Origin: Anaerolineae bacterium
GTDB taxonomy: Bacteria > Chloroflexota > Anaerolineae > Anaerolineales > Villigracilaceae
Length of the DNA: 38,768 bases
NCBI GenBank assembly: GCA_022616105.1
Contig: JAKEFL010000202.1
Coordinates: forward strand, 1 to 38,768
Direction: 5' to 3'
Positions 10,314 to 31,676 of the stretch are shown here, one piece after another (the stretch's first letter is position 1; each line of letters opens with the position of its first letter). The position numbers were made by a program, and so were the translations under genes. Below the pieces are notes generated by a model. It was given only the letters and a program-made list of their open reading frames with translations. It was not told where the DNA came from and ran no database searches.

Positions 10314-10356
10314 TTCCGTTATATAATCAGCTATCTCAACCGAGGAGCAATTGCAC

Positions 10357-11262
10357 ATGAAGCGGGCAGTCAGTATCAGCATTGGTTCGTCGAAAAGGAA
10401 CAAAGCAGTGGAAGTGACTCTGCTCGGTGAAAAAGTCAGCATGGAACGCATCGGCACGGATGGAGATATGGAAGCCGCTGCATTGAAGTTCCAGGAACTG
10501 GATGGAAAGGTGGATGCCTTTGGCGTGGGCGGCGCGGACCTGGGCGCCATCGTCGATGGAAAATGGTATACCTTACATTCAGTGACACCCATGGTGCGGT
10601 TTGTAAAAAAGACCCCGCTGGTGGATGGCGGCGGGTTGAAAAATACACTCGAAAACAGGGCGCCTGCATTTTTAGATGCGAAAATTGGTGATTACATTAA
10701 TTCGCGCGGACGAAAAGTCCTTGTGGCTCTCGGCGTGGACCGCTGGGGACTCTCCCAGGCTTTTGCGGATGCTGGCTATGAAACCATCTTTGGCGATCTG
10801 ATGTTCGGGTTGGATATTCCGATCGCTCTTCATAAGACCAGTCAGCTTAAAATGGTGGCCGCACTACTCATGCCAATTGCAAGCCGCTTGCCCTTTGTGT
10901 GGATTTACCCCACCGGTGAAAAACAGGAAAAGCGCACACCCAAATGGGGAAAATATTATGCATGGGCGACTGTCATCGCGGGCGATTGTCATTACATCAA
11001 ACGCTTTATGCCTGATGATTTGCAAGGTAAGGTTATCGTCACAAACACCACTACACCTGAAGATGTGGAGTTGTTCAGGAGATGTGGCGTTAAATACCTT
11101 GTAACAACAACACCGGTCCTGGAAGGCCGTTCATTTGGCACGAATATGATGGAAGCTGCTCTGGTTGCTGCCTCCGGCAAGGGACGCCCGTTGAGTTGGC
11201 CTGAATTAAATGAAATGCTGGATAAACTTGGATTTGAGCCGCAGTTGCAGGAGTTGAATTAA
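10357..11262 (+). CDS. Conserved protein of the family often annotated as quinate 5-dehydrogenase-like
   Basis: ORF 10351-11262; MKRAVSISIGSSKRNKAVEVTLLGEKVSMERIGTDGDMEAA...GKVDAFGVGGADL...TPLVDGGGLKNTLE. Family assignment from memory; function uncertain. Confidence 0.5.
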   Translation: MKRAVSISIGSSKRNKAVEVTLLGEKVSMERIGTDGDMEAAALKFQELDGKVDAFGVGGADLGAIVDGKWYTLHSVTPMVRFVKKTPLVDGGGLKNTLENRAPAFLDAKIGDYINSRGRKVLVALGVDRWGLSQAFADAGYETIFGDLMFGLDIPIALHKTSQLKMVAALLMPIASRLPFVWIYPTGEKQEKRTPKWGKYYAWATVIAGDCHYIKRFMPDDLQGKVIVTNTTTPEDVELFRRCGVKYLVTTTPVLEGRSFGTNMMEAALVAASGKGRPLSWPELNEMLDKLGFEPQLQELN

Positions 11263-11263
11263 C

Positions 11264-11350
11264 ATGTCATTGCGAGGAGCGTTCGCAGCGACGAAGCAAT
11301 CTCCCCACAAATGAGGGGATTGCTTCGGGCTAGCGCCCTCGCAATGACAT
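11264..11350. repeat. Interspersed palindromic repeat (TCATTGCGAGGAGC...GAAGCAATC...GATTGCTTC...CTCGCAATGA type)
   Basis: Exact 14-bp terminal inverted repeats ATGTCATTGCGAGG (11264-11277) and CCTCGCAATGACAT (11337-11350) plus inner stem GAAGCAATCTCCCC/GGGGATTGCTTC. Confidence 0.9.
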
Positions 11351-11369
11351 AGTGATATAAGGAGAATGT

Positions 11370-12299
11370 ATGGATGCAATCGTAATCGCTGGTGGAATAC
11401 CACGCCCTGAAGATCCACTTTACACATATTCACATGGCGACTCCAAAGCTCTTATCGATATAGCAGGTAAGCCTATGGTCCAATGGGTGCTGGATGCGCT
11501 TGGAAACGCGAAACAAGTAGATAATGTAATTGTCGTTGGCCTTTCCCCTAAAAACAATTTGACTTGTAACAGGCCGCTTCACTATCTTTCCAATCAGGGG
11601 CGCATGCTTACGAATATTGTCACTGGCGTGCATAAGTCTCTTGAACTGAACAAAAAGAGTAAATATGTGCTCATCGTTTCTTCTGATATTCCATCACTCA
11701 AGCCTGAAATGGTCGACTGGCTGGTGGATACCTGTATGCAAACCCGGGATGACCTTTACTATGGAGTATGTACACGTGAGGTAATGGAAAAAAGATTCCC
11801 CGACTCAAAACGTACCTATACTCATCTCAAAGGTATGGATGTCTGTGGTGCTGATATGAATATCAGTCATGTACGCATGGCTGTCGAACACCTTGAGATG
11901 TGGGAACAGTTGATTGGTAATCGTAAGAGTCCGCTCAAACAGGCAAGCATCATCGGCTTTGGAACACTCTTTTCCCTCTTCGCAAGGCAATTGACTCTCG
12001 AAGATGCTGTTGCGCGGGTATCCAACCGTATTGGCATTAAAGCGCGCGCGATTATATGGCCCTATGCCGAACCGTGCATGGACGTGGATAAGCCGCATCA
12101 ACTTGAACTGTTACGGGCAGACCTGGCGAAAGAGCAGCGCAGGTCTGTTACCCGGGCAAAAGCAGGGTTGAAAAAGACGACCAAAACAAAAGCGGCAATA
12201 AACTCCAAAAAGAAACCAAAGGTGGTTGAAAAGGTTATTGTATCGAAAGCAGCCAGGAGCAAGGTCAAACCAAAAGCAAAACCCAGGCTGCAAAAATGA
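11370..12299 (+). CDS. MobA-like NTP transferase domain protein with Lys/Ala-rich C-terminal tail
   Basis: MDAIVIAGGIPRPEDPLYTYSHGDSKALIDIAGKPMVQWVLDAL is the NTP_transferase signature; AAGGAG RBS; about 60-aa K-rich tail. Confidence 0.8.
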   Translation: MDAIVIAGGIPRPEDPLYTYSHGDSKALIDIAGKPMVQWVLDALGNAKQVDNVIVVGLSPKNNLTCNRPLHYLSNQGRMLTNIVTGVHKSLELNKKSKYVLIVSSDIPSLKPEMVDWLVDTCMQTRDDLYYGVCTREVMEKRFPDSKRTYTHLKGMDVCGADMNISHVRMAVEHLEMWEQLIGNRKSPLKQASIIGFGTLFSLFARQLTLEDAVARVSNRIGIKARAIIWPYAEPCMDVDKPHQLELLRADLAKEQRRSVTRAKAGLKKTTKTKAAINSKKKPKVVEKVIVSKAARSKVKPKAKPRLQK

Positions 12300-12856
12300 A
12301 CCTGGACTCCGTTCTTAGATTGGATGCACGTTTATCAGATCAGATGCGCGTGGCTGAAAAGCCAGGCGCATTGCGCTCTGTTTCCGTCTTCTTCGCGCAT
12401 TCAGGTGATTCATGGTTTTGGGCGATCGGTTTGTTCACGCTTTGGCTGAGTGGAAATTCGTTTTGGAAAGAGTGGGCTGTCGTGCAGTTGGCGGGCATCA
12501 GCCTGCTGGCGGCTTTGGTGATGAGTATCAAGTTCCTCGTTCGAAGGAGACGACCCGAAGGTGAGTGGGGAGGCATCTATCGGAATACCGATCCGCATTC
12601 GTTTCCATCCGGTCACGCGGCGCGCTCATTTCTTATTGCTGTGGCTGCAACCGGGCTTGGTCCGAACTGGCTGGCAGCCCTGCTATGGATCTGGGCGCCA
12701 CTGGTTGCACTCGCACGCGTCGCGATGGGTGTGCATTATGTTTCAGATATCCTGGCTGGCGGGGTATTGGGAATACTATTTGCCCTGATTGGCTTGCAAA
12801 TCTATGAACCTCTGCTCATGTGGGTTTCGAGTTTAATAGGTTTCCCGCTTTGGTAA
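12296..12856 (+). CDS. PAP2 superfamily phosphatase
   Basis: ATGA overlap with upstream gene; KFLVRRRRPEGEW...SFPSGHAARSF...ALARVAMGVHYVSDILAGGVLG is the PAP2 tripartite motif. Confidence 0.9.
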   Translation: MNLDSVLRLDARLSDQMRVAEKPGALRSVSVFFAHSGDSWFWAIGLFTLWLSGNSFWKEWAVVQLAGISLLAALVMSIKFLVRRRRPEGEWGGIYRNTDPHSFPSGHAARSFLIAVAATGLGPNWLAALLWIWAPLVALARVAMGVHYVSDILAGGVLGILFALIGLQIYEPLLMWVSSLIGFPLW

Positions 12857-20350: not shown

Positions 20351-21355
20351 GTGCGTGTGAGATCTACCATTCTTTTTATTGCAATTGCTATTACGATGAG
20401 TGCATGTGGAGCTGCGGCGGAACCAGCTTCCACATCCACTCCCATCCCAACAGACACCCAGGTTGTTCCTCCCACTCTTACAGCCACGCCTACAATACCA
20501 CTTGCGGTGTTGGTCATTCCACCAGACCTTGACCCCGATACATCTAATCTATATCAGACAACAGTATATGATCTGGCTCAGGCATCCGGGTTTCGTTTTC
20601 AGGTGCGTAACACGCTGACACCTGCCGATATCGAACCTGGCTTGAAAGTAGTGATTGCACTGCCGCCTGACCCTGGAATTGCCGCGCTTGCTGCTACAGC
20701 ACCAGATGTGCAATTCCTTGCGATCAATATCCCTGACATCACTGCGGGTGGAAATGTCAGCGTGTTGGGAAATAATTCTCAATCGGATATTTCTGCGTTT
20801 CTGGCTGGTTATACTGCCGCACTCATCACAGATGATTACCGCATTGGCATGATGATCCCGAAGGATAATGCGGACGCAATCCGTTCGTTGAATGCCTTCG
20901 TCAATGGCATGAAATTCCATTGCGGGACTTGTCCTCGTCTCTATTTTTATCAGTGGGCTTTCCCACAATATATCGAAATCGGTGCTGATGAAGATCCGGC
21001 TAATTATGACGCGTATGCGGATATCCTTATACTGCAATACAAAGTCAGCACGATCTATCTTCATCCTGATATTTCTACTACAGATCTCATTACCTATATT
21101 GGCACGACAGGTACATCCATGATCGGAACGAAAACCCCGGAGCAGCAGCCTGCTGGCTGGGTGATGACCATTCAACCCGATGTGATCAAAGCGATTCAAA
21201 ATGCGTGGCCGGACCTAATCAATGGACAGGGCGAGCTCACGGTTCAATCTCCCCTTGGCTTGGCTGATATAGATCCAAGCCTTCTCTCCCCTGGAAAACA
21301 ACGACTTGTTGAACAAACGCTTAGCGACTTACAAGCGGGTTTGATTAGTCCATGA
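20351..21355 (+). CDS. BMP-family/periplasmic-binding-like lipoprotein
   Basis: GTG start 20351; RVRSTILFIAIAITMSACG lipobox; LAVLVIPPDLDPDTSNLYQTTVYDLAQASGFRFQV...VQFLAINIPDI...ISAFLAGYTAALITDDYRIGMMIP. TATAAT at 20315-20320. Confidence 0.65.
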   Translation: MRVRSTILFIAIAITMSACGAAAEPASTSTPIPTDTQVVPPTLTATPTIPLAVLVIPPDLDPDTSNLYQTTVYDLAQASGFRFQVRNTLTPADIEPGLKVVIALPPDPGIAALAATAPDVQFLAINIPDITAGGNVSVLGNNSQSDISAFLAGYTAALITDDYRIGMMIPKDNADAIRSLNAFVNGMKFHCGTCPRLYFYQWAFPQYIEIGADEDPANYDAYADILILQYKVSTIYLHPDISTTDLITYIGTTGTSMIGTKTPEQQPAGWVMTIQPDVIKAIQNAWPDLINGQGELTVQSPLGLADIDPSLLSPGKQRLVEQTLSDLQAGLISP

Positions 21356-21368
21356 AGTGTCATTAAAC

Positions 21369-21400
21369 CAAAACCCCCGTGAATATCACGAGAGTTTTGG
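21369..21400. terminator. Putative terminator hairpin
   Basis: CCAAAACccccgtgaatatcacgagaGTTTTGG with nested CGTGA/TCACG. Confidence 0.5.
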
Positions 21401-21441
21401 CATCAAAAAGGAGGAGAAGAAGGAGAATAGCAAGGGGGGAC

Positions 21442-21879
21442 TTATAAAGTCACCCCCATGATCGCAGAAGTTCTTTCGCTTCGTTGACCGTGCCCAAGCC
21501 ATGCCATTGCTTTGATAACCAACACAGCAGAGTTCACGGGTTTCACAAGGCATTCATCTGCACCTGCCTGGTTGGCTTCCATGATTTCATCAACAGTATT
21601 TGCTGAAATGAGCATCAAAATAGGACCACGGCTGGCTGTGCGCAAACCTATTAGCAGGGCAGCGCGTTCAGACTTGGATAATTGCATATCAATCAACATT
21701 AATGAAGGACCGACCAGCCGCGCGCTTTGCAGGGCATCCGATACATTCGATTCAGAAAGAACAATACAATTTCTCTGGTTAAAAAGGGTATCCAAAACTG
21801 CAACGCTCTCAGGCTGATCGGAGACGATCAACACCGTATGAAGGGGGATGGTATCTGCATTAGATTTCCAGGCAACCAT
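21442..21879 (-). CDS. Response-regulator receiver (REC)-like domain protein
   Basis: Start at ATG 21879 (AAGGAA RBS); HTVLIVSDQPESVAVLDTLF...LMLIDMQLSKSERAALL...PILMLISANTVDEIMEANQAGADECLVKPVN. Confidence 0.75.
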   Translation of the reverse strand: MVAWKSNADTIPLHTVLIVSDQPESVAVLDTLFNQRNCIVLSESNVSDALQSARLVGPSLMLIDMQLSKSERAALLIGLRTASRGPILMLISANTVDEIMEANQAGADECLVKPVNSAVLVIKAMAWLGHGQRSERTSAIMGVTL

Positions 21880-21906
21880 GAGTGAGTTCCTTTCTTTCTT
21901 GTTAAC

Positions 21907-21936
21907 TTGACGTGAATCCAGCCAACATGTTACACT
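21907..21936 (+). promoter_or_regulatory. Putative sigma70-type promoter for the leader/GNAT transcript
   Basis: TTGACG (21907-21912), 18-nt spacer, TACACT (21931-21936). Confidence 0.45.
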
Positions 21937-21979
21937 CGAAATGTAGGCAAATTTCGCGAAGCGGAAAGGAGACGTACCC

Positions 21980-22063
21980 ATGTTCAACAGCAAAACCATT
22001 TTTATCACTCGAATCGGCGACAGTGGTTCTGTTGATTCGCGGAGTGCGCCTGCTCATCATTAA
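21980..22063 (+). CDS. Candidate 27-aa leader peptide
   Basis: GGAAAGGAG RBS then ATG; MFNSKTIFITRIGDSGSVDSRSAPAHH*; overlaps a long RNA hairpin and ends in a second hairpin. Confidence 0.4.
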   Translation: MFNSKTIFITRIGDSGSVDSRSAPAHH

Positions 22064-22083
22064 TTTACACGCAATGTAAATTA

Positions 22084-22120
22084 AAGCCGCGGTGCACTCG
22101 CCCGTGGCTTCTTTGTTTCT
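22084..22120 (+). terminator. Putative attenuator/terminator hairpin
   Basis: AAGCCGCGG (22084-22092) pairs with CCGTGGCTT (22102-22110), then CTTTGTTTCT; preceded by TAATTTACA/TGTAAATTA hairpin 22061-22083. Confidence 0.5.
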
Positions 22121-22170
22121 TAAGTAAGCCATGGGCAAATGCCTGTGGCGATTTTTATTCCTCATCTCAA

Positions 22171-22210
22171 CTCCTCTCCCATTTTGGGAGAGGGGCAAGG
22201 GGTGAGGGTG
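22171..22210. repeat. Interspersed palindromic repeat CTCCTCTCCCATTTTGGGAGAGGGGCAAGGGGTGAGGG
   Basis: Perfect stem CCTCTCCCA/TGGGAGAGG with the GGGGTGAGGG tail typical of a widespread bacterial repeat. Confidence 0.7.
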
Positions 22211-22218
22211 GAGGAAAC

Positions 22219-22797
22219 ATGTTCGATATTCAAACTCAATTATTTGAAGCCAGGGATATTCGCTTCGGTCCTATTGATCATGAAAAGGATCCCGAAATCG
22301 AAGCCAAATGGACTCATGATTCTGAGTTCATGCGCATGATGGAGATCAATCCTGCCAGGCCCCTGTCGGCAGCGATCATCAAGAAGCAGTATGAAAAACT
22401 TGAAAAGCAAATTGATGAAAGTAAAAATCTGTATCACTTTGCCATCCGTGCCAAAGAAGATGACAGGCTGATCGGCAAGGCTGGTATCCAGTGGATCGAG
22501 TGGACGAATGGCAATGGCTGGATTAATCTTGGTATTGGCGCTGCAGAAGATAGGCGTAAAGGATATGGTTCTCAGGCATTGAACATGCTGATTCGTTTTG
22601 CATTTGCAGAGCTGAATCTCTTTCGTGTCAGCGCGCGGGTGCCTGAATACAATGAGGCAGCGATTGCCTTGTTCGAGAAATTCGGCTTTATGGAGGAAGT
22701 TCGCCGCCGCCAAGCCCTTGACCGCGACGGCCGCCGATGGGACCTCATCGTTTTCGGGCTGTTGAACTCTGAGTGGCAGAATCAAGCCAAAGCGTAG
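22219..22797 (+). CDS. GNAT family N-acetyltransferase (RimJ/RimL-like)
   Basis: GGAGG RBS; GWINLGIGAAEDRRKGYGSQALNMLIRFAFAELNLFRVSARVPEYNEAAIALFEKFGF. Confidence 0.88.
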   Translation: MFDIQTQLFEARDIRFGPIDHEKDPEIEAKWTHDSEFMRMMEINPARPLSAAIIKKQYEKLEKQIDESKNLYHFAIRAKEDDRLIGKAGIQWIEWTNGNGWINLGIGAAEDRRKGYGSQALNMLIRFAFAELNLFRVSARVPEYNEAAIALFEKFGFMEEVRRRQALDRDGRRWDLIVFGLLNSEWQNQAKA

Positions 22798-22806
22798 GAG
22801 GAAACG

Positions 22807-23376
22807 ATGAGAGATTTATTTCGCGGAAAACTTGTTCGTCTTACATGGGAAGAGCCTGACGCGCGCGCAAAGATTGAAGTCCAGTGGCAACGCGATACAG
22901 AATTCCATCGCCTCGCGGATAGCGATCCCGCCCGAATGGAATCGGAGAAGAAACTCAAGGAGTGGTTTGAGAAACAAAGCGAGAATGGTTTCAAACCCGA
23001 ACGCTATTCCTTTTCTGTTCGCACATTGGAGGAAGATAAGCACATCGGTTTCTTTGTGTTATGGCTTGACTTGATCCACAACGAAGCCTGGGTTGGGATT
23101 GGTATTGGCGACCGCGACTTCTGGGGCAGGGGCTATGGCACAGAGATGATGAAACTGTGCCTGCAATATGCGTTTACTGAATTGAACGTGCATCGCGTCT
23201 CGCTGGGTTTGCACGAATACAACCCGCGCGCGTTGCGGTCATATGAGAAAGCAGGCTTTCGACTCGAAGGGCGAACGCGCAAGGATTTGACGCGCGAAGG
23301 CAGGCGATATGACTCATTGTGGCTGGGAATCCTGCGCGAAGAATGGATGCAAATGCAAAATGGAGATCAACCATGA
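22807..23376 (+). CDS. GNAT family N-acetyltransferase (RimJ/RimL-like)
   Basis: AWVGIGIGDRDFWGRGYGTEMMKLCLQYAFTELNVHRVSLGLHEYNPRALRSYEKAGF. Confidence 0.9.
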   Translation: MRDLFRGKLVRLTWEEPDARAKIEVQWQRDTEFHRLADSDPARMESEKKLKEWFEKQSENGFKPERYSFSVRTLEEDKHIGFFVLWLDLIHNEAWVGIGIGDRDFWGRGYGTEMMKLCLQYAFTELNVHRVSLGLHEYNPRALRSYEKAGFRLEGRTRKDLTREGRRYDSLWLGILREEWMQMQNGDQP

Positions 23377-23948
23377 AGGATATTCTTACAGGCAATCTTG
23401 TGCGCCTGGCTGCATTCGACCCCGAAGAGGTTGGAAAGGCATTTTCAGGGTGGAGTCGCGATTCGGAATATTGGCGTTTAATGGATTCTGGCGCGATTCG
23501 TTTGCAGTCAACAAAAGAAGCCGTTAAAAATTTCGAGAAGGAAGTTGAAGAGCTCGCGCCTGGGGTCTATTTCTTTGGTGTTCGCAGACTTGCCGATGAT
23601 GTATTGATTGGTGAGATGGTTCTGGACGTTGTGAACTGGAGTGGGCGCGATGCATTCGTGGGCCTTAGTATTGGCGCGCGAGAAAACTGGGGCAAAGGCT
23701 ACGGCACGGACATGATGAAGGTGTTATTGCGCTTTGCTTTCACTGAAGTCAATTTAAAGCGCGTGTCGCTGGGTGTGTTCGAGTACAACCCGCGCGCCAT
23801 CCGTTCCTACGAAAAGTCAGGCTTCTGTCATGAGGGACGCCAGCGAGGATTTCTAAACCGGGAAGGGAAGCGATGGGATATGCCCTTCATGGGCATCCTG
23901 CGTGAAGAGTGGATGAATCTGCAAGAGAAAGAAAGGGAAAATATGTGA
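23373..23948 (+). CDS. GNAT family N-acetyltransferase (RimJ/RimL-like)
   Basis: ATGA overlap with upstream gene; AFVGLSIGARENWGKGYGTDMMKVLLRFAFTEVNLKRVSLGVFEYNPRAIRSYEKSGF. Confidence 0.9.
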   Translation: MKDILTGNLVRLAAFDPEEVGKAFSGWSRDSEYWRLMDSGAIRLQSTKEAVKNFEKEVEELAPGVYFFGVRRLADDVLIGEMVLDVVNWSGRDAFVGLSIGARENWGKGYGTDMMKVLLRFAFTEVNLKRVSLGVFEYNPRAIRSYEKSGFCHEGRQRGFLNREGKRWDMPFMGILREEWMNLQEKERENM

Positions 23949-24856
23949 TGAGAGCGCGCGGCTATGAAGGAATACAAGATCTATATGCCATGCTTGATCT
24001 ATTGGCAGAGGGGCGCAAGGCTGATAACGGCACCTATTACGTCCACCGCGGTGATTTGCAATGGTGGCTGTTTTACACCGATGTGCCTCAGGAAGCATGG
24101 CAGCCCAATATCCACCTTTGGATCGACGATGGTGATCGTTTGATTGGCTGGGCTTTGCTTTCACAAGGTGAATATGCCTTCGATGTTTATGTTTCTCCGC
24201 TTTTGCGCGGCGATTCGCGTGAACATGAAATGCTTGCCTGGGCTGTAGAGCAGATGTCCGCGCTTGGCAGCCTGCAAAACGTTTGGGTTGCAGAGGATGA
24301 TGAAGTGCGCATTCGATGGATGAAAGAAAATGGATTCAAACCTGAGCAGGGACATTTCGTTCATTTCAAGCGCTCATTATTTGGACCCTTGGATGGACCC
24401 GCGTTACCTGAAGGATTCAGCCTGCGGACATCGCGCGGCCAAGAAGACGCGCGTCTGCGTTCGGTGATATCTCATGCAGCGTTTGGGTCTAGTAAGCCGT
24501 TTGAGGAATACTGGCCGCGTACACTGCGTTTCATGCAATCAGCAGTCTATGTGCCTGAACATGAAATATTCGTCGTTTCTCCGAACGGAGAGATCGCCGC
24601 GTTTTGCATTATCTGGACAGATGAACTTAGTAAGATCGGGCATTTCGAGCCAGTTGCCACGCACCCAAATTTTCAGCGCATGGGCCTGGGGAAGAGTCTG
24701 CTTTTCGAAGGCATGCGCAGGCTCAAGTCCGAAGGTATGAACGAAGCCGATGTCTGTACGAATGATGATAACGCGCCCGCGATCCGTTTATATGAGTCGG
24801 TTGGTTTTCAAAAAGCCAAACGATTGTTGACGTATAGGAAAAAGAGGACAACATGA
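23948..24856 (+). CDS. Tandem GNAT domain acetyltransferase
   Basis: TGATG overlap; C-terminal THPNFQRMGLGKSLLFEGMRRLKSEGMNEADVCTNDDNAPAIRLYESVGF; degenerate N-terminal GNAT half. Confidence 0.82.
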   Translation: MRARGYEGIQDLYAMLDLLAEGRKADNGTYYVHRGDLQWWLFYTDVPQEAWQPNIHLWIDDGDRLIGWALLSQGEYAFDVYVSPLLRGDSREHEMLAWAVEQMSALGSLQNVWVAEDDEVRIRWMKENGFKPEQGHFVHFKRSLFGPLDGPALPEGFSLRTSRGQEDARLRSVISHAAFGSSKPFEEYWPRTLRFMQSAVYVPEHEIFVVSPNGEIAAFCIIWTDELSKIGHFEPVATHPNFQRMGLGKSLLFEGMRRLKSEGMNEADVCTNDDNAPAIRLYESVGFQKAKRLLTYRKKRTT

Positions 24857-25887
24857 ATACAACACTTGTCAAGCAGCAAATTCTTCCACTGCCTGCCGGC
24901 TATACAGCGCGCGGTGGAAATATTGATGATTACAAAATCGCCTGCGATTTGCTCAATGCTCATTCACAATATCTAAACAAGTGTGATGACTTGAACGATC
25001 CTGAATTGCTTCGTCTCGACTGGCAGAACGATGGTTTCAATCCAGAGACAGACACGCGTATGATATTTGCGCCAGATCAGACTCTCGTCGCGTTTGCGGA
25101 ATGCTGGCTAACTCAGGAACCGCCGGTTCATCCGTGGATCTTTGGCTGTGTGCATCCTGATCATTGGGGCAAGGGCATTGGCAGTCACATTCTCACATGG
25201 GCAGAAGAGCACGCGCGCCTCGCGCTCGAAAAATGTGAACCCGATCTGCGCGTTGCGCCGCGTTCTGGAGCCGAAGCGCACAACCAGGCCGGGCTTGACC
25301 TCTTTGAAGGCCTGAGATGGAAATACATCCGCTCCTTCTATCGCATGGTCACGGATTTGGATTCTGCGCCCGAAGTTCCCTCATTCCCTGATGGAATTAC
25401 CGTGCGCCCGTACAACCCTGAAACAGAGACTGAAGAAGTCTATCGGACGCTCGTTGACACGTTCAAAGATCACTTTGGTTTCATTGCCCCGCCGTTTGAA
25501 AAAGGTCTGGCAGATTTTAAACATAACTTCATTGAGGAACCAGGCTACGATCCGCGCTTTTGGTTTGTTGCCATGGCAGGCGATGAAATGGCTGGAATAT
25601 GTATTTGCCGTCCCGAAGACGCGGAGGATCTGGAATCAGGCTGGGTCAACGAGCTGGGTGTGAAACGCGCCTGGCGCAAACGCGGGCTTGGATATGCCTT
25701 GCTCAAACATGCCTTCGCTGCGTTTTATACAAATGGAAAGAAACGCGCAGGTCTGGGTGTGGATGCAGACAGCCTGACAGGCGCGCTGCGTTTGTATGAA
25801 CGCGCGGGTATGCGAGTCCAGCGTCAATTCAACCAATACGAAAAGGAATTCCGGCCCGGCAGAGAGCTGGCTGTGGAATCTTTATAG
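24853..25887 (+). CDS. Tandem GNAT domain acetyltransferase (MshD-like architecture)
   Basis: ATGA overlap; two acetyl-CoA-binding regions VHPDHWGKGIGSHILTWAEE and VKRAWRKRGLGYALLKHAFAAF...LTGALRLYERAGM. Confidence 0.85.
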   Translation: MNTTLVKQQILPLPAGYTARGGNIDDYKIACDLLNAHSQYLNKCDDLNDPELLRLDWQNDGFNPETDTRMIFAPDQTLVAFAECWLTQEPPVHPWIFGCVHPDHWGKGIGSHILTWAEEHARLALEKCEPDLRVAPRSGAEAHNQAGLDLFEGLRWKYIRSFYRMVTDLDSAPEVPSFPDGITVRPYNPETETEEVYRTLVDTFKDHFGFIAPPFEKGLADFKHNFIEEPGYDPRFWFVAMAGDEMAGICICRPEDAEDLESGWVNELGVKRAWRKRGLGYALLKHAFAAFYTNGKKRAGLGVDADSLTGALRLYERAGMRVQRQFNQYEKEFRPGRELAVESL

Positions 25888-26031
25888 ACGATATCCAATA
25901 TCAGTACTTCACGAAGATTATTCGTAGTGGCGACTTCCCTGGCACCGTGCGGCTTAAGCCGTACGATTTGCCAAGCAAATCAGGCAGATGTAGTCGCTAA
26001 CGAAAAAGTTGAAGTGAATAGGAGAAGGAAC

Positions 26032-27066
26032 ATGAAACCACAATACCAGGAAGAATTGATTTCACCTTTACCGGATGGCTTCACAGTTCGTGGAGCAACG
26101 TTGAATGATCTGGACGCCGCGCTTGAGTTGTATAATCGCCGGTCACAATCGGTCATTCATGAGAATGAAATAACAGATGTAGAAGCTGTTCGAAATGAGT
26201 GGGTCTCACCAGGTTTTGACATGACGGATGATATTCGTCTTGTCTTTGCGCCGAATGGTGAGATGGTTGGTTACATTGAAGTGTGGACGACCTCCAAGCC
26301 GCCCGTTCATCCGTGGATCTGGGGCCGCGTCGATCCTCAATATCAAAAGCTTGGCATTGGCACATATTTGTTGGCATGGGCTGAAGCGCGCGCCAAAAGG
26401 GTATTGGATGAGATTCCAGGCGATTTGCGTTTTGCCCCACGCGTTGGAACATTCCCGCAGGCTGAGACAGCGAAGAAATTGTTTGAAGACATGGGTTATC
26501 AGCGCATCCGCAGTTCATATAACATGAGGATCGATATGGATACACCTCCGCCCGCGCCGGTATGGCCCGAAGGCATCACGCTGCGCGCCTATAATCCTGA
26601 AACTGATCTTGAAGCTGTCTATCGCGCCGATATCGAAGCGTTCCGCGATCATTTTGGTTATGTGGAACCTCCGTTTGAAGAGGGCTTGGAGCGCTTCAAA
26701 CATTTTATGACCGCTCATAAGGATTTTGATCCCAGTTTATGGTTCCTTGCGATGGATGGTGATCAGATTGCAGGTATCTGTCTATGTCGTAAAGAGGCTT
26801 TCGACAACCCTGATGTAGGCTATGTGAATATCCTGGGAGTGCGCGCTCCCTGGCGCAAGCGAGGCATTGGGCTTGCATTGCTTCGTCACGCGTTTGGCGA
26901 ATTGTATCGACGCGGCAAACGCAAAGCCGGACTTGGTGTAGATGCCGAAAACCTGACGGGTGCGTTGCGTCTTTATGAGAACGCGGGCATGCATGTTCAT
27001 CAGGCTTTTGACCTCTTTGAAAAGGAAATGAGACCTGGCAGGGAAATCAGTGTACAATCACTTTGA
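26032..27066 (+). CDS. Tandem GNAT domain acetyltransferase, paralog of the preceding gene
   Basis: GGAGAAGGAAC RBS; VDPQYQKLGIGTYLLAWAEA and VRAPWRKRGIGLALLRHAFGELYRRGKRKAGLGVDAENLTGALRLYENAGM. Confidence 0.87.
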   Translation: MKPQYQEELISPLPDGFTVRGATLNDLDAALELYNRRSQSVIHENEITDVEAVRNEWVSPGFDMTDDIRLVFAPNGEMVGYIEVWTTSKPPVHPWIWGRVDPQYQKLGIGTYLLAWAEARAKRVLDEIPGDLRFAPRVGTFPQAETAKKLFEDMGYQRIRSSYNMRIDMDTPPPAPVWPEGITLRAYNPETDLEAVYRADIEAFRDHFGYVEPPFEEGLERFKHFMTAHKDFDPSLWFLAMDGDQIAGICLCRKEAFDNPDVGYVNILGVRAPWRKRGIGLALLRHAFGELYRRGKRKAGLGVDAENLTGALRLYENAGMHVHQAFDLFEKEMRPGREISVQSL

Positions 27067-27093
27067 TAAAAACCTTGTCACAAAGGAGTTCTC

Positions 27094-27567
27094 ATGAATA
27101 TCCGTTGCTCTTTCTGTAAGATGCCTTATACACTCAGCCGCATTGAAATGATCGATGCATTGCAGGAAATGGATTCTCAAAAATTGAATCACTACGACGC
27201 CCATTGCCCGCGTTGCAAACGCGCCACTCCCATTCAACGCCAGCGGTTGGAAATGTTTATGCCAAAATGGCGCGATGAACTGAGAAAATTGGAAATGGAA
27301 TTGAAAGAGCATCCACAGATAGCGGCCCCCACCTCTGTATCTGCGTCCAACCCCCCTGTTTCCCCCCCAGTGGAGGGGACAGAAGGGGGGTCCAGTCCCG
27401 AGCCTGTTCCCGCGAAAGCAAAAGCCAAAGGTGACACCAAAGCAAAACCTCCGTCAAAGAGACAGGTCAGGCAGAAGCCGGCCGCCAGGGCTGAGCTGGG
27501 CAGGAAAGCGCCTGCCAAAAATACTCCCGCGGCATCGCGATCCAGAGGGAAAAAGAAAAGTACATGA
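27094..27567 (+). CDS. Zinc-ribbon-like protein with basic, low-complexity C-terminal tail
   Basis: IRCSFCKMPYTL...HYDAHCPRCKRATPI (two CxxC) then K/A/P-rich tail; AAAGGAG RBS. Confidence 0.65.
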   Translation: MNIRCSFCKMPYTLSRIEMIDALQEMDSQKLNHYDAHCPRCKRATPIQRQRLEMFMPKWRDELRKLEMELKEHPQIAAPTSVSASNPPVSPPVEGTEGGSSPEPVPAKAKAKGDTKAKPPSKRQVRQKPAARAELGRKAPAKNTPAASRSRGKKKST

Positions 27568-28160
27568 GCATCCGGGCAGTATTATTCGATCTGGGCGGGG
27601 TCATCGTCCGCACGGAATATCAGGCACCGCGTCAGCATCTCGCTGAAAGGCTTGGAATGGAGTACGACGACCTCGTCAAGATCGTCTTCGACAGCGATTC
27701 GGGTTATCAGGCATCCATCGGCGCGATACTACCGGAAGCTCATTGGGACTCGGTGATAAAAAGGCTAAAGCGCCCTGCCTCTGAAATGGAAGCCATTCGC
27801 CATGAATTCTTCGCGGGTGACATCATTGATCACACGCTCATAGATTTTCTGCGTTCACTGCGCGGCAAATATAAAACCGGGCTCATCTCCAACGCATGGG
27901 GTGATCTGCGCGAATACATCGTGAGGGAGAAGTTCGATGATGCGTTTGATCATATGATCATCTCTGCGGAAGTGGGCGCGGTCAAGCCTGAAGCGAAGAT
28001 CTATCAAGTTGCTCTGGAGCAGGTTGGGGTGAAGCCGAAGGAGATGGTGTTTGTGGATGACTTCGCGGTCAATATCGAAGGTTGTGAAAAAGTCGGCATC
28101 AAGGGCATCCTTTTTAAAGATCCCGATTCTGCTCTCAAGCAGTTGAAAGCCTTATTATAG
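27564..28160 (+). CDS. HAD superfamily hydrolase
   Basis: ATGA overlap; IRAVLFDLGGVIVRTEY...TGLISNAWGDLR...HMIISAEVGAVKPEAKIYQVALEQVGVKPKEMVFVDDFAVNIEGCEKVGIKGI. Confidence 0.93.
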   Translation: MSIRAVLFDLGGVIVRTEYQAPRQHLAERLGMEYDDLVKIVFDSDSGYQASIGAILPEAHWDSVIKRLKRPASEMEAIRHEFFAGDIIDHTLIDFLRSLRGKYKTGLISNAWGDLREYIVREKFDDAFDHMIISAEVGAVKPEAKIYQVALEQVGVKPKEMVFVDDFAVNIEGCEKVGIKGILFKDPDSALKQLKALL

Positions 28161-28211
28161 GCAACTGTCCTATCGATAAATGGGCGGTTGTATGATACCT
28201 CAAGGCAACAC

Positions 28212-29540
28212 ATGTTAACACAAACCAAAAAAATCATACATGACCTGGGCGATGGATTGATCCTGCGTCATGCTTCACCTGAGGATGCAGATGCATTATC
28301 CCAATTCAACGGCGAGATTCATGCTGAGGATGAGGCAGATAAAGAACGCCTCGCCGCATGGACCCGCGACTTGCTCACGCGCCCTCATCCGACTCTCAAC
28401 CCAAGCGACTTTACGATCATCGAAGAAGCAGCTACAGGAAGGATCGTTTCATCTTTGAATTTGATCCCGCAAATGTGGTCATACGAAGGGATTGAGTTTG
28501 GTGTCGGACGGCCTGAACTGGTGGGCACGTTACCCGAATATCGCGGCCGCGGACTCGTGCGCATTCAATTCGACGAGATCCATCAATGGTGCGCGGAACG
28601 CGGATACATGGTGCAGGCGATCACCGGTATTCCGTATTTTTACCGCCAGTTTGGTTATGAGATGGCGCTCGACCTGGCAGGCAGGCGTTATGGTTATGAA
28701 GAACATGTTCCAAAATTGAATCAGGGCGAAGAGGAGAAATATACCTTTCGCCTCGCCACAGATGTGGATTTAGCGTTTATTGCTGAAATATATAACCATG
28801 CGATTCAAGGTCAGGCAATCGCCTGCGTACTTACGCCTGCTATCTTCAAATATGAACTGGATGGCCAAAACCAAATCTATCGCAACCTGATGTTTGTGAT
28901 CGAAGACAAATCAGGTGAGAGGCTTGGCTATTTTCAGCACCGCGACCACCTCGGCGCTACGGGCTTGACCGTGAACTGGTATGAACTTAAAAACGATGTC
29001 TCCTGGCTGGATGTAACGCCGAGCGTTGTACGTTACGCGTGGAATAAAGGAAAGGAATATGAAAAACGCGATGGGAAAGCCTGCACTTCCTTTTGTTTCA
29101 TGCTCGGTGCAGAGCATCCTGCCTACGAAGCCTTGGGAAATAACCTTCCTTATTATTCTGAACCCTATGCGTGGTATTTGCGTGTGTCTGACTTACCAGG
29201 TTTTTTGAATCATATCAAACCTGTGCTTGAAAAACGATTGGCTGAGTCCATTGCGCCCGGACACAGCCGCGAGATCAAGATCGGTTTTTATCGCGGCGGA
29301 TTGCGTTTTGTGATTGAGCACGGGCACATCAGAACCATCGAAGCATGGAAGTCAGCACTGAATGATGAAGGCGATATTGCCTTTCCCGGCCTGACCTTCC
29401 TGCAAATACTCTTTGGTTATCGTAGTTACGAAGAGTTGCATTACGCTTTTCCCGATTGCTGGTGTGACCATAGGGATGTACGCGTCTTAATCAATATTCT
29501 GTTTCCGAAAAAGATATCGAACGTGTTTGGGATTGCATAA
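28212..29540 (+). CDS. GNAT family N-acetyltransferase (long, Eis-like two-part protein)
   Basis: LILRHASPEDADALSQFN...ELVGTLPEYRGRGLVRIQFDEIHQWCAERGYMVQAITGIPYFYRQFGYEMALDLAG. Confidence 0.75.
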   Translation: MLTQTKKIIHDLGDGLILRHASPEDADALSQFNGEIHAEDEADKERLAAWTRDLLTRPHPTLNPSDFTIIEEAATGRIVSSLNLIPQMWSYEGIEFGVGRPELVGTLPEYRGRGLVRIQFDEIHQWCAERGYMVQAITGIPYFYRQFGYEMALDLAGRRYGYEEHVPKLNQGEEEKYTFRLATDVDLAFIAEIYNHAIQGQAIACVLTPAIFKYELDGQNQIYRNLMFVIEDKSGERLGYFQHRDHLGATGLTVNWYELKNDVSWLDVTPSVVRYAWNKGKEYEKRDGKACTSFCFMLGAEHPAYEALGNNLPYYSEPYAWYLRVSDLPGFLNHIKPVLEKRLAESIAPGHSREIKIGFYRGGLRFVIEHGHIRTIEAWKSALNDEGDIAFPGLTFLQILFGYRSYEELHYAFPDCWCDHRDVRVLINILFPKKISNVFGIA

Positions 29541-29556
29541 GTCTTCCAGATGAAAT

Positions 29557-30837
29557 ATGTTTCCTAACCTAAAGTTAAGTGCGAGGTTTGTTTATATCTT
29601 CATTGAGTTCACTGCATCCATGTTCTTCTCGATGATGTTTGTTGTCACATCGTTATATGAAGCGACTGTTGCCGGGTTGACACCTGTCCAGCTTATCCTC
29701 GTTGGTACAACGCTTGAGGTATCTGCATTTCTGTTCGAGGTGCCAACCGGCATCGTCGCAGATGTGTACTCACGCAGACTGTCCATCATCATCGGCTATG
29801 TGCTCATGGGTGTTGGCTTCCTCGTGGAAGGCTTCTTCCCATTCTTTGCCACGATCCTGCTCGCGCAAGTCATTTGGGGCTTGGGTTATACCTTCACTTC
29901 AGGTGCAACACAGGCATGGATCACGGACGAGATTGGCGAAAACGATGCAAACAAACTTTTTCTGCGGGCAACACAAGTTGGCTTGTTTGCATCACTCATT
30001 GGAATAGGACTTGCCACGTTGGTTGGTGCGAACAATGTTGCCTTGCCTATTCAAGCCGGTGCATTGGGTGTGATTCTGATCGGCATCATCCTCATAATCA
30101 TCATGCCAGAGACGGGTTTTCATCCCATCCCGCGGCACGCGGGACGCGAAGACCGCAATACCTGGCAGCATATGTGGCATACATTCAGACAGGGCGTAGG
30201 CGCGGTCCGTTCCAAGCCGCGCCTCATCAACATTGTTTTTATTGGTCTGTTTTATGGCATCTATAGCGAAGGCTTTGATCGTCTGTGGGTCAAGCATTTG
30301 CTCGATAATTTTGATCTGCCTGTTCTCTTTGGAAACAATCAGGTAGCTTTCTTCGCGGCATTGCGCGTGGCGGGCACGATCCTCACCATTCTCGCGGTCC
30401 GCTTCGTGGAAAAGCGTGTGGATTCGACAAGTCCACTGGCGATTGGCCGCGCGATGCTTCTTGTAACTGGGATCATCTCTTTTTCACTTTTTGGATTTGC
30501 GCTTTCGCCGCTTCTCATTCTTAGTCTGGCCCTGTATCTCGTTATAAACGTCTTACGCAATGTCCAGATTCCTTTGCAAACTGCATGGATCAATCAGAAA
30601 CTGGATTCGCAGGTACGCGCCACGGTCCATTCCATGTTTGGACAGGTGGATGCCATTGGTCAGGTGATGGGTGGTCCTATTGTCGCGGTGATCGCCTGGT
30701 TTGCGCAAGGCGCGGCTGTCGCCTCGCTCGTGACTTCGAGTCTGCTTCTAACGCCCGCGCTGTTCTTTATCCGACGCGCCAATTCACAGTCGATGGAAGA
30801 AGCGGATCCAAAAATAGAATCGGTTCTCGCTGATTAA
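29557..30837 (+). CDS. MFS transporter
   Basis: About 12 TM segments; FEVPTGIVADVYSRRLSIIIGYVLMGVGFLVEGFFPFF...GLGYTFTSGATQAWITDEIG. Confidence 0.9.
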   Translation: MFPNLKLSARFVYIFIEFTASMFFSMMFVVTSLYEATVAGLTPVQLILVGTTLEVSAFLFEVPTGIVADVYSRRLSIIIGYVLMGVGFLVEGFFPFFATILLAQVIWGLGYTFTSGATQAWITDEIGENDANKLFLRATQVGLFASLIGIGLATLVGANNVALPIQAGALGVILIGIILIIIMPETGFHPIPRHAGREDRNTWQHMWHTFRQGVGAVRSKPRLINIVFIGLFYGIYSEGFDRLWVKHLLDNFDLPVLFGNNQVAFFAALRVAGTILTILAVRFVEKRVDSTSPLAIGRAMLLVTGIISFSLFGFALSPLLILSLALYLVINVLRNVQIPLQTAWINQKLDSQVRATVHSMFGQVDAIGQVMGGPIVAVIAWFAQGAAVASLVTSSLLLTPALFFIRRANSQSMEEADPKIESVLAD

Positions 30838-30936
30838 ACAACCTGTCTTCCAAATTTTAACTTTGAGTTAATACTGCTTAACAGACTCTCAGGATTTAGG
30901 AGGGTATTTCCTGAAATTGGATAGGCACATTCCCCA

Positions 30937-30965
30937 TTGAGTTATACACAGCTCACTTGTATAGT
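30937..30965 (+). promoter_or_regulatory. Putative sigma70-type promoter for the 31001 lipoprotein
   Basis: TTGAGT (30937-30942), 17-nt spacer, TATAGT (30960-30965). Confidence 0.5.
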
Positions 30966-31000
30966 AAACAAAACCTGTTGTGATAGAAAAGGAGTAAGAA

Positions 31001-31507
31001 ATGAAATACAAAACTATACTTGGAGCCATATTCGTATTGGCTCTTATCCTAACAGGCTGTGCACCTGCGCCGACCGAACCCGCTGCTTCTGATACACAAG
31101 CCGCTGCTGAAACGCCGACAGTAGGTGTTCCGGTCACACGTGAAGCGACCGTGAATGTCAGTGAGTCAACTGAGTTTGGTCATATCCTTGTGGATGGCGA
31201 AGATATGTCGCTTTACGTCTTTATGGCTGACACTCAAGACGGCGGTACCAGCGCCTGTACAGGTGATTGTGCTGTGGAATGGCCGCCTTTGATCAGTCAG
31301 GGTTCCCCTGTAGCTGGCGAAGGTGTGGATGCCACCCTTTTAGGAACCATCACGCGTGACGATGGGTCGCTCCAGGTGGCTTACAATGGCTGGCCGCTTT
31401 ATCTATTTGCAGATGATACAGCGCCCGGTGACACCAATGGTCAGGGTGTGGACGATGGTGGTCTCTGGTTCCTCGTTTCACCAACTGGAGAACCTATTCA
31501 ACAATAG
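31001..31507 (+). CDS. COG4315-type secreted-repeat lipoprotein
   Basis: LILTGCAP lipobox; repeats [38 protein letters not shown] and [41 protein letters not shown]. Confidence 0.85.
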
Positions 31508-31540
31508 AAGATAAAAAACTTTGCAACAGTGAATCCGCTT

Positions 31541-31562
31541 GGGCGGGGTGAAATCCCCGCCC
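31541..31562 (+). terminator. Putative terminator hairpin
   Basis: GGGCGGGG TGAAAT CCCCGCCC. Confidence 0.5.
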
Positions 31563-31676
31563 AGGCTATTTAATAAGATAGTTGACGATGAGGAAAATTA
31601 TTTCGGGTGCCACTTCATATTGAAGTGACGAAAACCTAAAATTGGAAAGTGTGGAGTGTGTTATCACTTCTCCGCC

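What the first reader, a model, noticed from the sequence alone, without database searches (positions are those of the whole stretch)
22219..30837. Co-directional array of seven GNAT acetyltransferases with zinc-ribbon, HAD and MFS genes
Seen: ten plus-strand genes, several with 4-bp ATGA or TGATG overlaps (23373, 23948, 24853, 27564), six GNATs in a row and a seventh before an MFS transporter. Three are single-domain RimJ/RimL-like; three have tandem GNAT halves. Inference: a dedicated small-molecule or peptide acetylation/export or self-resistance cluster, or a rapidly expanding paralog family. No substrate can be assigned from sequence.
Basis: partly seen in the sequence, partly recalled or inferred. 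Interest (0 to 1): 0.65.

Follow-up and report, generated by a model that had tools for sequence, protein, structure and literature searches.

The report
Acetyltransferase resistance operon with ribosome-sensing leader
A row of seven acetyltransferase genes in an uncultured bacterium turns out to be a conserved operon that appears to be switched on when ribosomes are blocked, through a short RNA leader that the same bacteria also place in front of drug pumps and ribosome-protection genes, suggesting an inducible antibiotic-defence set not described before in this group.

Summary
In detail: ten plus-strand genes, seven of them GNATs, with the stated overlaps. The gene cluster is not chance. It is syntenic across the genus and family, and recurs, reshuffled, across the order Anaerolineales (Chloroflexota). 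The GNATs are under purifying selection, and the G2/G3 overlap is -4 bp in 20 of 20 loci.

The important part lies just outside the reported coordinates (21907-22159). It is a leader with promoter, Shine-Dalgarno, a 27-codon ORF, a small hairpin and two terminators. The end of the leader ORF (B) can pair either with its own Shine-Dalgarno (A) or with the 5' arm of the terminator (C). Both pairings co-vary (permutation z 6.0 and 4.5). This is the anatomy of a ribosome-mediated transcription attenuator.

A model of it finds copies in 95 of 151 Anaerolineales genomes. Outside the order there was 1 partial hit in about 230 genomes. The copies precede GNAT arrays, ABC multidrug-type exporters, ABC-F proteins or MFS pumps. 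The window's genome has four.

Best reading: an antibiotic/translation-stress-inducible detoxification operon in a cis-regulated resistance regulon. The leader type is not in Rfam. Drug induction and acetylation substrates are untested.

The parts
21907..21936 (+). promoter-like TTGACG-N18-TACACT (with TG before -10)
   Evidence: scan (9/12 match, one of 9 such matches in 9 kb so not significant alone); the same -35/-10 present upstream of the leader in 11 other same-genus or family loci
21968..21978 (+). element A: Shine-Dalgarno of leader ORF (GGAGACGTACC), complementary to B
   Evidence: A:B duplex -13.8 kcal/mol here; mean of 35 leaders -18.2 vs -9.8 (sd 3.0) shuffled
21980..22063 (+). leader ORF, 27 aa, MFNSKTIFITRIGDSGSVDSRSAPAHH*
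   Evidence: open and in frame in 35 of 35 array leaders examined, 23-32 aa, variable N-term, conserved RSAP(A/V)xR end in most
22041..22052 (+). element B (GGAGTGCGCCTG), 3' end of leader ORF, near-invariant at nucleotide level incl. wobble positions
22061..22083 (+). small hairpin after leader stop (TTAATTTACACGCAATGTAAATTAA)
   Evidence: fold; comparable hairpins in several array leaders
22084..22121 (+). terminator 1; its 5' arm/loop (22091-22102) is element C, 3' arm D 22101-22110
   Evidence: covariance: 5 of 8 stem pairs with double changes in 35 sequences; B:C vs C:D energies -26.4 vs -23.9
22128..22159 (+). terminator 2 (GCCATGGGCAAATGCCTGTGGC + T-run)
   Evidence: similar second hairpin visible in many other array leaders
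22219..22797 (+). G1, single-domain GNAT (RimJ/RimL/SpeG-like)
   Evidence: PF13302 7.7e-19; orthologues 68-78% in genus
22807..23376 (+). G2, single-domain GNAT
   Evidence: PF13302 3e-19; nearest solved: AAC(6')/SpeG
23373..23948 (+). G3, single-domain GNAT, 50% identical to G2
   Evidence: -4 bp overlap with G2 in 20/20 loci
23948..24856 (+). G4, tandem GNAT with degenerate N half
   Evidence: AlphaFold pLDDT 88.9, Foldseek to 3tt2, MAB_4324, MshD; orthologues inside GNAT arrays of other families
24853..25887 (+). G5, tandem GNAT (type T2)
26032..27066 (+). G6, tandem GNAT (type T2), 48% to G5
   Evidence: PDB 3tt2 3.7e-57
27094..27567 (+). zinc-ribbon protein with Lys/Ala/Pro-rich tail, no Pfam family
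   Evidence: follows the last tandem GNAT in most f1 loci
27564..28160 (+). HAD-IA hydrolase
   Evidence: PF00702 5.9e-17, TIGR01509
28212..29540 (+). G7, Eis-fold acetyltransferase
   Evidence: PF13527; AlphaFold pLDDT 87.4 and full-length Foldseek match to Eis/Eis2
29557..30837 (+). MFS exporter, TetA(P)/Tet(40)-like
   Evidence: NCBIfam 293 bits, below cut-off 750

Best explanation
The ten genes form one inducible detoxification/resistance operon of Anaerolineales, controlled in cis by a ribosome-mediated transcription attenuator. Transcription starts at about 21943 and normally stops at terminators 1/2. With no translation, A (leader SD) pairs with B (end of leader ORF), leaving C free for the terminator. 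With normal translation the ribosome runs to the stop and covers B, so the terminator again forms. When ribosomes are held at the start or early codons of the leader (translation-blocking drug or other translation stress), A is covered, B is free and pairs with C, the terminator is disrupted and the GNAT genes, HAD and exporter are transcribed. The products would then acetylate (RimL/AAC-like, MshD-like tandem and Eis-like enzymes) and expel amine-bearing toxic compounds. The same leader stands before ABC exporter pairs, ABC-F proteins and MFS pumps, so it defines a regulon. Shown by computation: genes, synteny, leader, co-varying alternative pairings, regulon membership, order-restricted distribution. 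Inferred: the direction of the switch, induction by translation inhibitors, drug acetylation.
For: Synteny over genus, family and order. Purifying selection, dN/dS 0.08-0.25 on array genes in pairs with unsaturated dS. Leader ORF with SD in frame in 35/35 array leaders. Leader found in 30 of 34 array loci whatever gene comes first; the four without a full hit (L067, L113, L115, L130) have their first array gene within 0.4 kb of the edge of the stretch. A:B duplex -18.2 vs -9.8 kcal/mol shuffled and -16.1 vs -7.6 in 34 non-array leaders. Own A:B and B:C pairing beats all 5000 permutations across 67 leaders (z 6.0, 4.5). Antiterminator energy at or below terminator in 23 of 42. 95 of 151 order genomes carry it; in a phylum-wide sample 17 of 21 in the order versus 1 partial hit in about 230 outside. 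44 of 103 copies lie within 6 kb upstream of an array-family GNAT. 36 of 39 other copies precede ABC exporters, ABC-F, MFS, ABC-2 or GNAT genes. ABC-F identity passes the NCBIfam 'ribosomal protection-like' cut-off in three of three tested. Known precedent: bmrB-bmrCD, induced by ribosome-targeting drugs (PMC4191407); toiL, where tetracycline stalls ribosomes at the leader start codon (PMC12121999).
Against: No expression or drug data. Equilibrium folding of the whole window leader keeps the terminator even with A blocked, so the switch must be kinetic or need other contacts. The clade with G5 (L031, L033, L035) has weaker B:C pairing. The window's A:B has a mismatch. Leader peptide N-termini show little codon-level constraint (differences 196/197/234 at positions 1/2/3). 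Three of the four ABC-F-associated copies score low (32-36 bits) and no leader ORF was recognised there. No GNAT in the array passes a curated resistance-enzyme cut-off. The simple terminator scan finds no excess of hairpins.
Confidence: 0.6

Rival explanations
1. Translation-stress response rather than drug inactivation: the GNATs modify ribosomal proteins, aminoacyl-tRNA or other translation factors and help ribosomes survive stress; the same attenuator would sense that stress.
For: G1-G3 are RimJ/RimL-like; RtcB RNA ligase sits inside or next to GNAT arrays in at least nine loci (L066, L078, L115, L175, L187, L188, L190, L191, L200); a zinc-ribbon and HAD of unknown role are the steadiest partners.
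Against: MFS, ABC-2, APH-like kinase and metallo-beta-lactamase-fold genes in the same arrays and ABC multidrug-type exporters behind the same leader fit small-molecule handling better.
Confidence: 0.2
2. Self-resistance or tailoring cluster for a compound the bacterium makes itself.
For: GNAT plus exporter is a common self-resistance pair (PamZ and the clavulanate tandem GNAT are structural neighbours of G4).
Against: No NRPS, PKS, RiPP or other biosynthetic genes seen in the 38.8 kb window or in the ~20 kb syntenic loci; order-wide distribution is unlike a product cluster.
Confidence: 0.07
3. Neutral paralogue expansion: tandem duplication made a GNAT cluster with no common function.
For: G2/G3 50%, G5/G6 48% identical; member number varies between genomes.
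Against: Conserved order and overlaps, purifying selection, shared leader, non-homologous GNAT types (RimL, MshD-like, Eis) and non-GNAT partners kept together across families.
Confidence: 0.05
4. The leader senses a metabolite (amino acid or polyamine) through the conserved RSAP(A/V)xR-stop end, like TnaC or SpeFL, and the GNATs acetylate that amine.
For: Peptide end is conserved and abuts the stop codon; G2 resembles spermidine acetyltransferases.
Against: Conservation of B is at nucleotide level and explained by A:B and B:C pairing; the clade with TAPAHR/IAPVTR/IAPAQP ends breaks the peptide motif; partners are drug pumps and ABC-F.
Confidence: 0.08

Closest known systems
bmrB-bmrCD of Bacillus subtilis (PMC4191407)
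   Same: short translated leader ORF, alternative stem-loops, terminator upstream of a multidrug exporter pair; in Anaerolineales the same kind of exporter pair follows the new leader
   Different: bmrB has 53 codons with the terminator inside the ORF; here the ORF is 23-32 codons in array leaders, the terminator lies after the stop, the SD itself is the A strand, and GNAT arrays are the main target
toiL-topAI-yjhQ of E. coli (PMC12121999)
   Same: uORF sensing several classes of ribosome drugs, with stalling at the start codon
   Different: acts on translation initiation and Rho, not on an intrinsic terminator
WhiB7/WblC resistance regulon of Actinobacteria (mainly from memory; PMC7157823 abstract)
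   Same: translation stress switches on a set including Eis-type acetyltransferase and efflux
   Different: one uORF controls a transcription factor in trans; here each operon carries its own copy of the leader
MshD / MAB_4324 / 3tt2 tandem GNATs
   Same: fold and tandem architecture of G4-G6
   Different: NCBIfam MshD cut-off not met (70.7 of 163.1 bits)
Eis of mycobacteria
   Same: full-length predicted fold and PF13527 for G7
   Different: about 15% identity, activity untested

Membership tests
ribosome-mediated transcription attenuator | short leader ORF with ribosome-binding site upstream of the structural genes | tested here: met
   35/35 array leaders, in frame
ribosome-mediated transcription attenuator | intrinsic terminator between leader ORF and first gene | tested here: met
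   8-bp stem, 5 pairs with double changes, T-run
ribosome-mediated transcription attenuator | mutually exclusive alternative pairing linking leader ORF to terminator | tested here: met
   A:B and B:C co-vary, 0 of 5000 permutations reach; energies comparable; relatedness of the sequences not fully controlled, and full-length fold of the window keeps the terminator
ribosome-mediated transcription attenuator | induction by ribosome stalling or translation inhibitor | not testable with these tools
   needs reporter or RNA-seq
any Rfam family | score above gathering threshold | tested here: not met
   no match in window 21000-31600 at E<=1 apart from two spurious ones and none over the leader in five other loci
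Eis acetyltransferase (G7) | GNAT-GNAT-SCP2-like three-domain fold | tested here: met
   full-length Foldseek hits to Eis/Eis2, TM about 0.6-0.65
Eis acetyltransferase (G7) | multi-site aminoglycoside acetylation | not testable with these tools
   enzyme assay needed
MshD mycothiol synthase (G5, G6) | TIGR03448 cut-off | tested here: not met
   40.2 and 70.7 of 163.1 bits
AAC(6')-Ie family (G2, G3) | NF033693 cut-off | tested here: not met
   42.2 and 36.1 of 340 bits
RimJ/RimL (G1) | NF008072 cut-off | tested here: not met
   22.4 of 190 bits
TetA(P)/Tet(40) (MFS) | NCBIfam exception cut-off | tested here: not met
   293 of 750 and 280 of 800 bits
ribosomal protection-like ABC-F (downstream of other leader copies) | NF000355 cut-off 380 | tested here: met
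   424, 455 and 440 bits
biosynthetic gene cluster with self-resistance | biosynthetic core enzymes nearby | tested here: not met
   none seen in window or syntenic loci; no dedicated BGC tool run

The most novel reading that the evidence does not exclude
Anaerolineales carry an order-specific, multi-operon resistance regulon in which each operon has its own copy of one homologous ribosome-sensing attenuator. Multi-GNAT arrays are its combinatorial acetylation arm, exchanged and reshuffled between species.
Probability: 0.5. Interest if true: 0.75.

Novelty: new variant of a known kind. Interest (0 to 1): 0.62.

Why it matters
It would give uncultured Chloroflexota a defined inducible defence against translation inhibitors, and give the large set of unassigned GNATs in these genomes a testable role. 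It would also add an attenuator family in which the leader's own Shine-Dalgarno is the sensing strand. It is directly testable with one reporter construct. Searching for the leader also predicts resistance-type genes that homology alone would not single out.

Tried and rejected
Rfam for the leader: only spurious hits (mir-H2, P10). NCBIfam/PDB for substrate: no GNAT passes a curated cut-off, so no substrate assigned. A specific arrest peptide was considered and set aside, because conservation is of nucleotides in B and the peptide end changes in one clade. Codon-position test of the leader N-terminus gave only a slight third-position excess. Whole-leader equilibrium folding did not show the antiterminator in the window. 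Chance clustering rejected.
Full report
What is there. G1, G2 and G3 are single-domain GNATs related to each other (G2/G3 50%, G1/G3 39%). G5 and G6 are tandem GNATs of one type (48% identity). G4 is another tandem GNAT whose N half Pfam misses but AlphaFold shows. G7 has the full Eis fold. A zinc-ribbon protein, a HAD hydrolase and a TetA(P)/Tet(40)-like MFS complete the row.

The neighbourhood is conserved. In relatives the same order recurs: HSP20, hypothetical protein, response regulator (opposite strand), G1-G2-G3, tandem GNAT T1, tandem GNAT T2 (G5 or G6 type), zinc-ribbon, HAD, optional G7, optional MFS. The window lacks T1, has G4 in its place, and holds both T2 types. In the other loci read here the G5 type (one clade of the genus) and the G6 type did not occur together (tree). 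G4 is also found at that position in L152 (65% identity) and in arrays of other families. G2 and G3 overlap by 4 bp in all 20 distinct loci where both lie side by side. Strong G1-G3-type hits (E<=1e-50) are adjacent clusters in 31 of 32 genomes (counted by eye). Other families of the order add an ABC-2 permease and its ATPase, an APH-like kinase, RtcB, a metallo-beta-lactamase-fold enzyme, amidase and other MFS pumps to the array. Array genes evolve under purifying selection. In one species pair (L035, L036) G1-G3 have dS 0.22-0.28 while HAD and zinc-ribbon next to them have dS 1.7-1.8 and the flanking hypothetical gene is saturated, which points to exchange of the GNAT block between species.

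The leader. Reading upstream of G1 showed a strongly conserved element. It has a promoter-like site (21907-21936), a Shine-Dalgarno (A), a short ORF ending in RSAP(A/V)xR-stop in most (B lies inside it), a small hairpin, terminator 1 (arms C and D) and often terminator 2. The ORF is in frame in all 35 array leaders examined and 23-32 aa long. B is nearly invariant in nucleotides, wobble positions included. B can pair with A or with C. The A:B duplex averages -18.2 kcal/mol against -9.8 (sd 3.0) for shuffled A. In 34 non-array copies the values are -16.1 against -7.6. Examples of compensating change: L188 GTCGCAA/TTGCG, L257 GACGCAC/GTGCGTC, L280 GCGCATT/AATGCGC. Across 67 leaders the own A:B and own B:C pairing scores exceed all of 5000 re-pairings between leaders (z 6.0 and 4.5). 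This control does not remove relatedness fully. Antiterminator (B:C) and terminator (C:D) energies are similar, with the former at or below the latter in 23 of 42 and in the window (-26.4 vs -23.9). In a full-length equilibrium fold of the window the terminator prevails, so the switch, if real, is kinetic.

A regulon. A covariance model of the 3' part of the leader finds it in 30 of 34 array loci regardless of the first gene. The four loci without a full hit (L067, L113, L115, L130) have their first array gene within 0.4 kb of the edge of the stretch, and for L115 the element lies just outside it. It finds four clear copies in the window's own genome: before the array, before an ABC exporter pair, before a second (contig-truncated) ABC exporter, and before an ABC-F gene. 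It finds copies in 95 of 151 genomes of the order. In a phylum-wide sample, 17 of 21 genomes of the order have it. Outside the order there was one hit in about 230 genomes, and that one covers only the terminator hairpin. 44 of 103 good hits lie within 6 kb upstream of an array-family GNAT. Of 39 other copies read in detail, 36 have an ABC exporter, ABC-F, MFS, ABC-2 or GNAT gene as the first recognised gene; the exceptions are one contig end and two unclear cases. Three ABC-F proteins tested pass the NCBIfam 'ribosomal protection-like ABC-F' cut-off. Three of the four ABC-F-linked leader copies are weak and lack a recognised ORF; the one in L258 is strong (71 bits).

How it most likely works. 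Ribosomes held at the start of the leader by a translation inhibitor cover A, free B, let B capture C, and stop the terminator from forming. Untranslated or fully translated leaders terminate. This matches published leaders that respond to ribosome-targeting drugs: bmrB of B. subtilis (PMC4191407) and toiL of E. coli, where tetracycline stalls at the start codon (PMC12121999). The enzymes would acetylate amine-bearing inhibitors and the exporter would remove them. The anatomy, co-variation, distribution and gene company are shown by computation. The direction of the switch, the inducer and the substrates are inferred.

Novelty. A full-text search for Anaerolineae together with leader peptides returned two papers that, by title and abstract, do not concern such leaders. 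Rfam has no matching family. The mechanism type is known; this leader family, its GNAT-array target and its order-wide regulon appear new. The organism is an Anaerolineales MAG, probably near Candidatus Villigracilaceae by the titles of the nearest named records (inference).

Noticed in passing
L066:11289-12779, L078:1320-2495, L115, L175, L187, L188, L190, L191, L200: RtcB RNA ligase genes sit inside or next to GNAT arrays in several lineages (including records titled Thermoflexales); reason unknown.
   Followed up: partly
L035 and L036 (G012, G015): G1-G3 have dS about 0.2-0.3 while neighbouring HAD/zinc-ribbon have dS 1.7-1.8 and the flanking hypothetical gene is saturated: recent exchange of the GNAT block between species.
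   Followed up: partly
window 24853-27066: Window carries both T2-type tandem GNATs (G5 and G6), which did not occur together in the other loci read, and lacks T1.
   Followed up: partly
window 10351-12856: actin-like / nucleotidyltransferase / PAP2 trio is also found near G7 in other families (L113, L121, L126, L127, L130), suggesting an old shared neighbourhood.
   Followed up: no
window 22169-22205 and 27350-27400: GC-rich palindromic 'ctctcccattttgggagaggggcaaggggtgaggg'-type repeats between leader and G1 and inside the zinc-ribbon gene, resembling dispersed repeats also seen in L031, L033, L048.
   Followed up: no
L041, L032 against other f1 loci: Some genomes have lost array members (L041 lacks G1-G3, L032 keeps only G5) while the leader stays in place before the next gene.
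   Followed up: yes
L136:2225-2319: c-di-GMP-I-GGC riboswitch in a related contig, unrelated to the leader.
   Followed up: no
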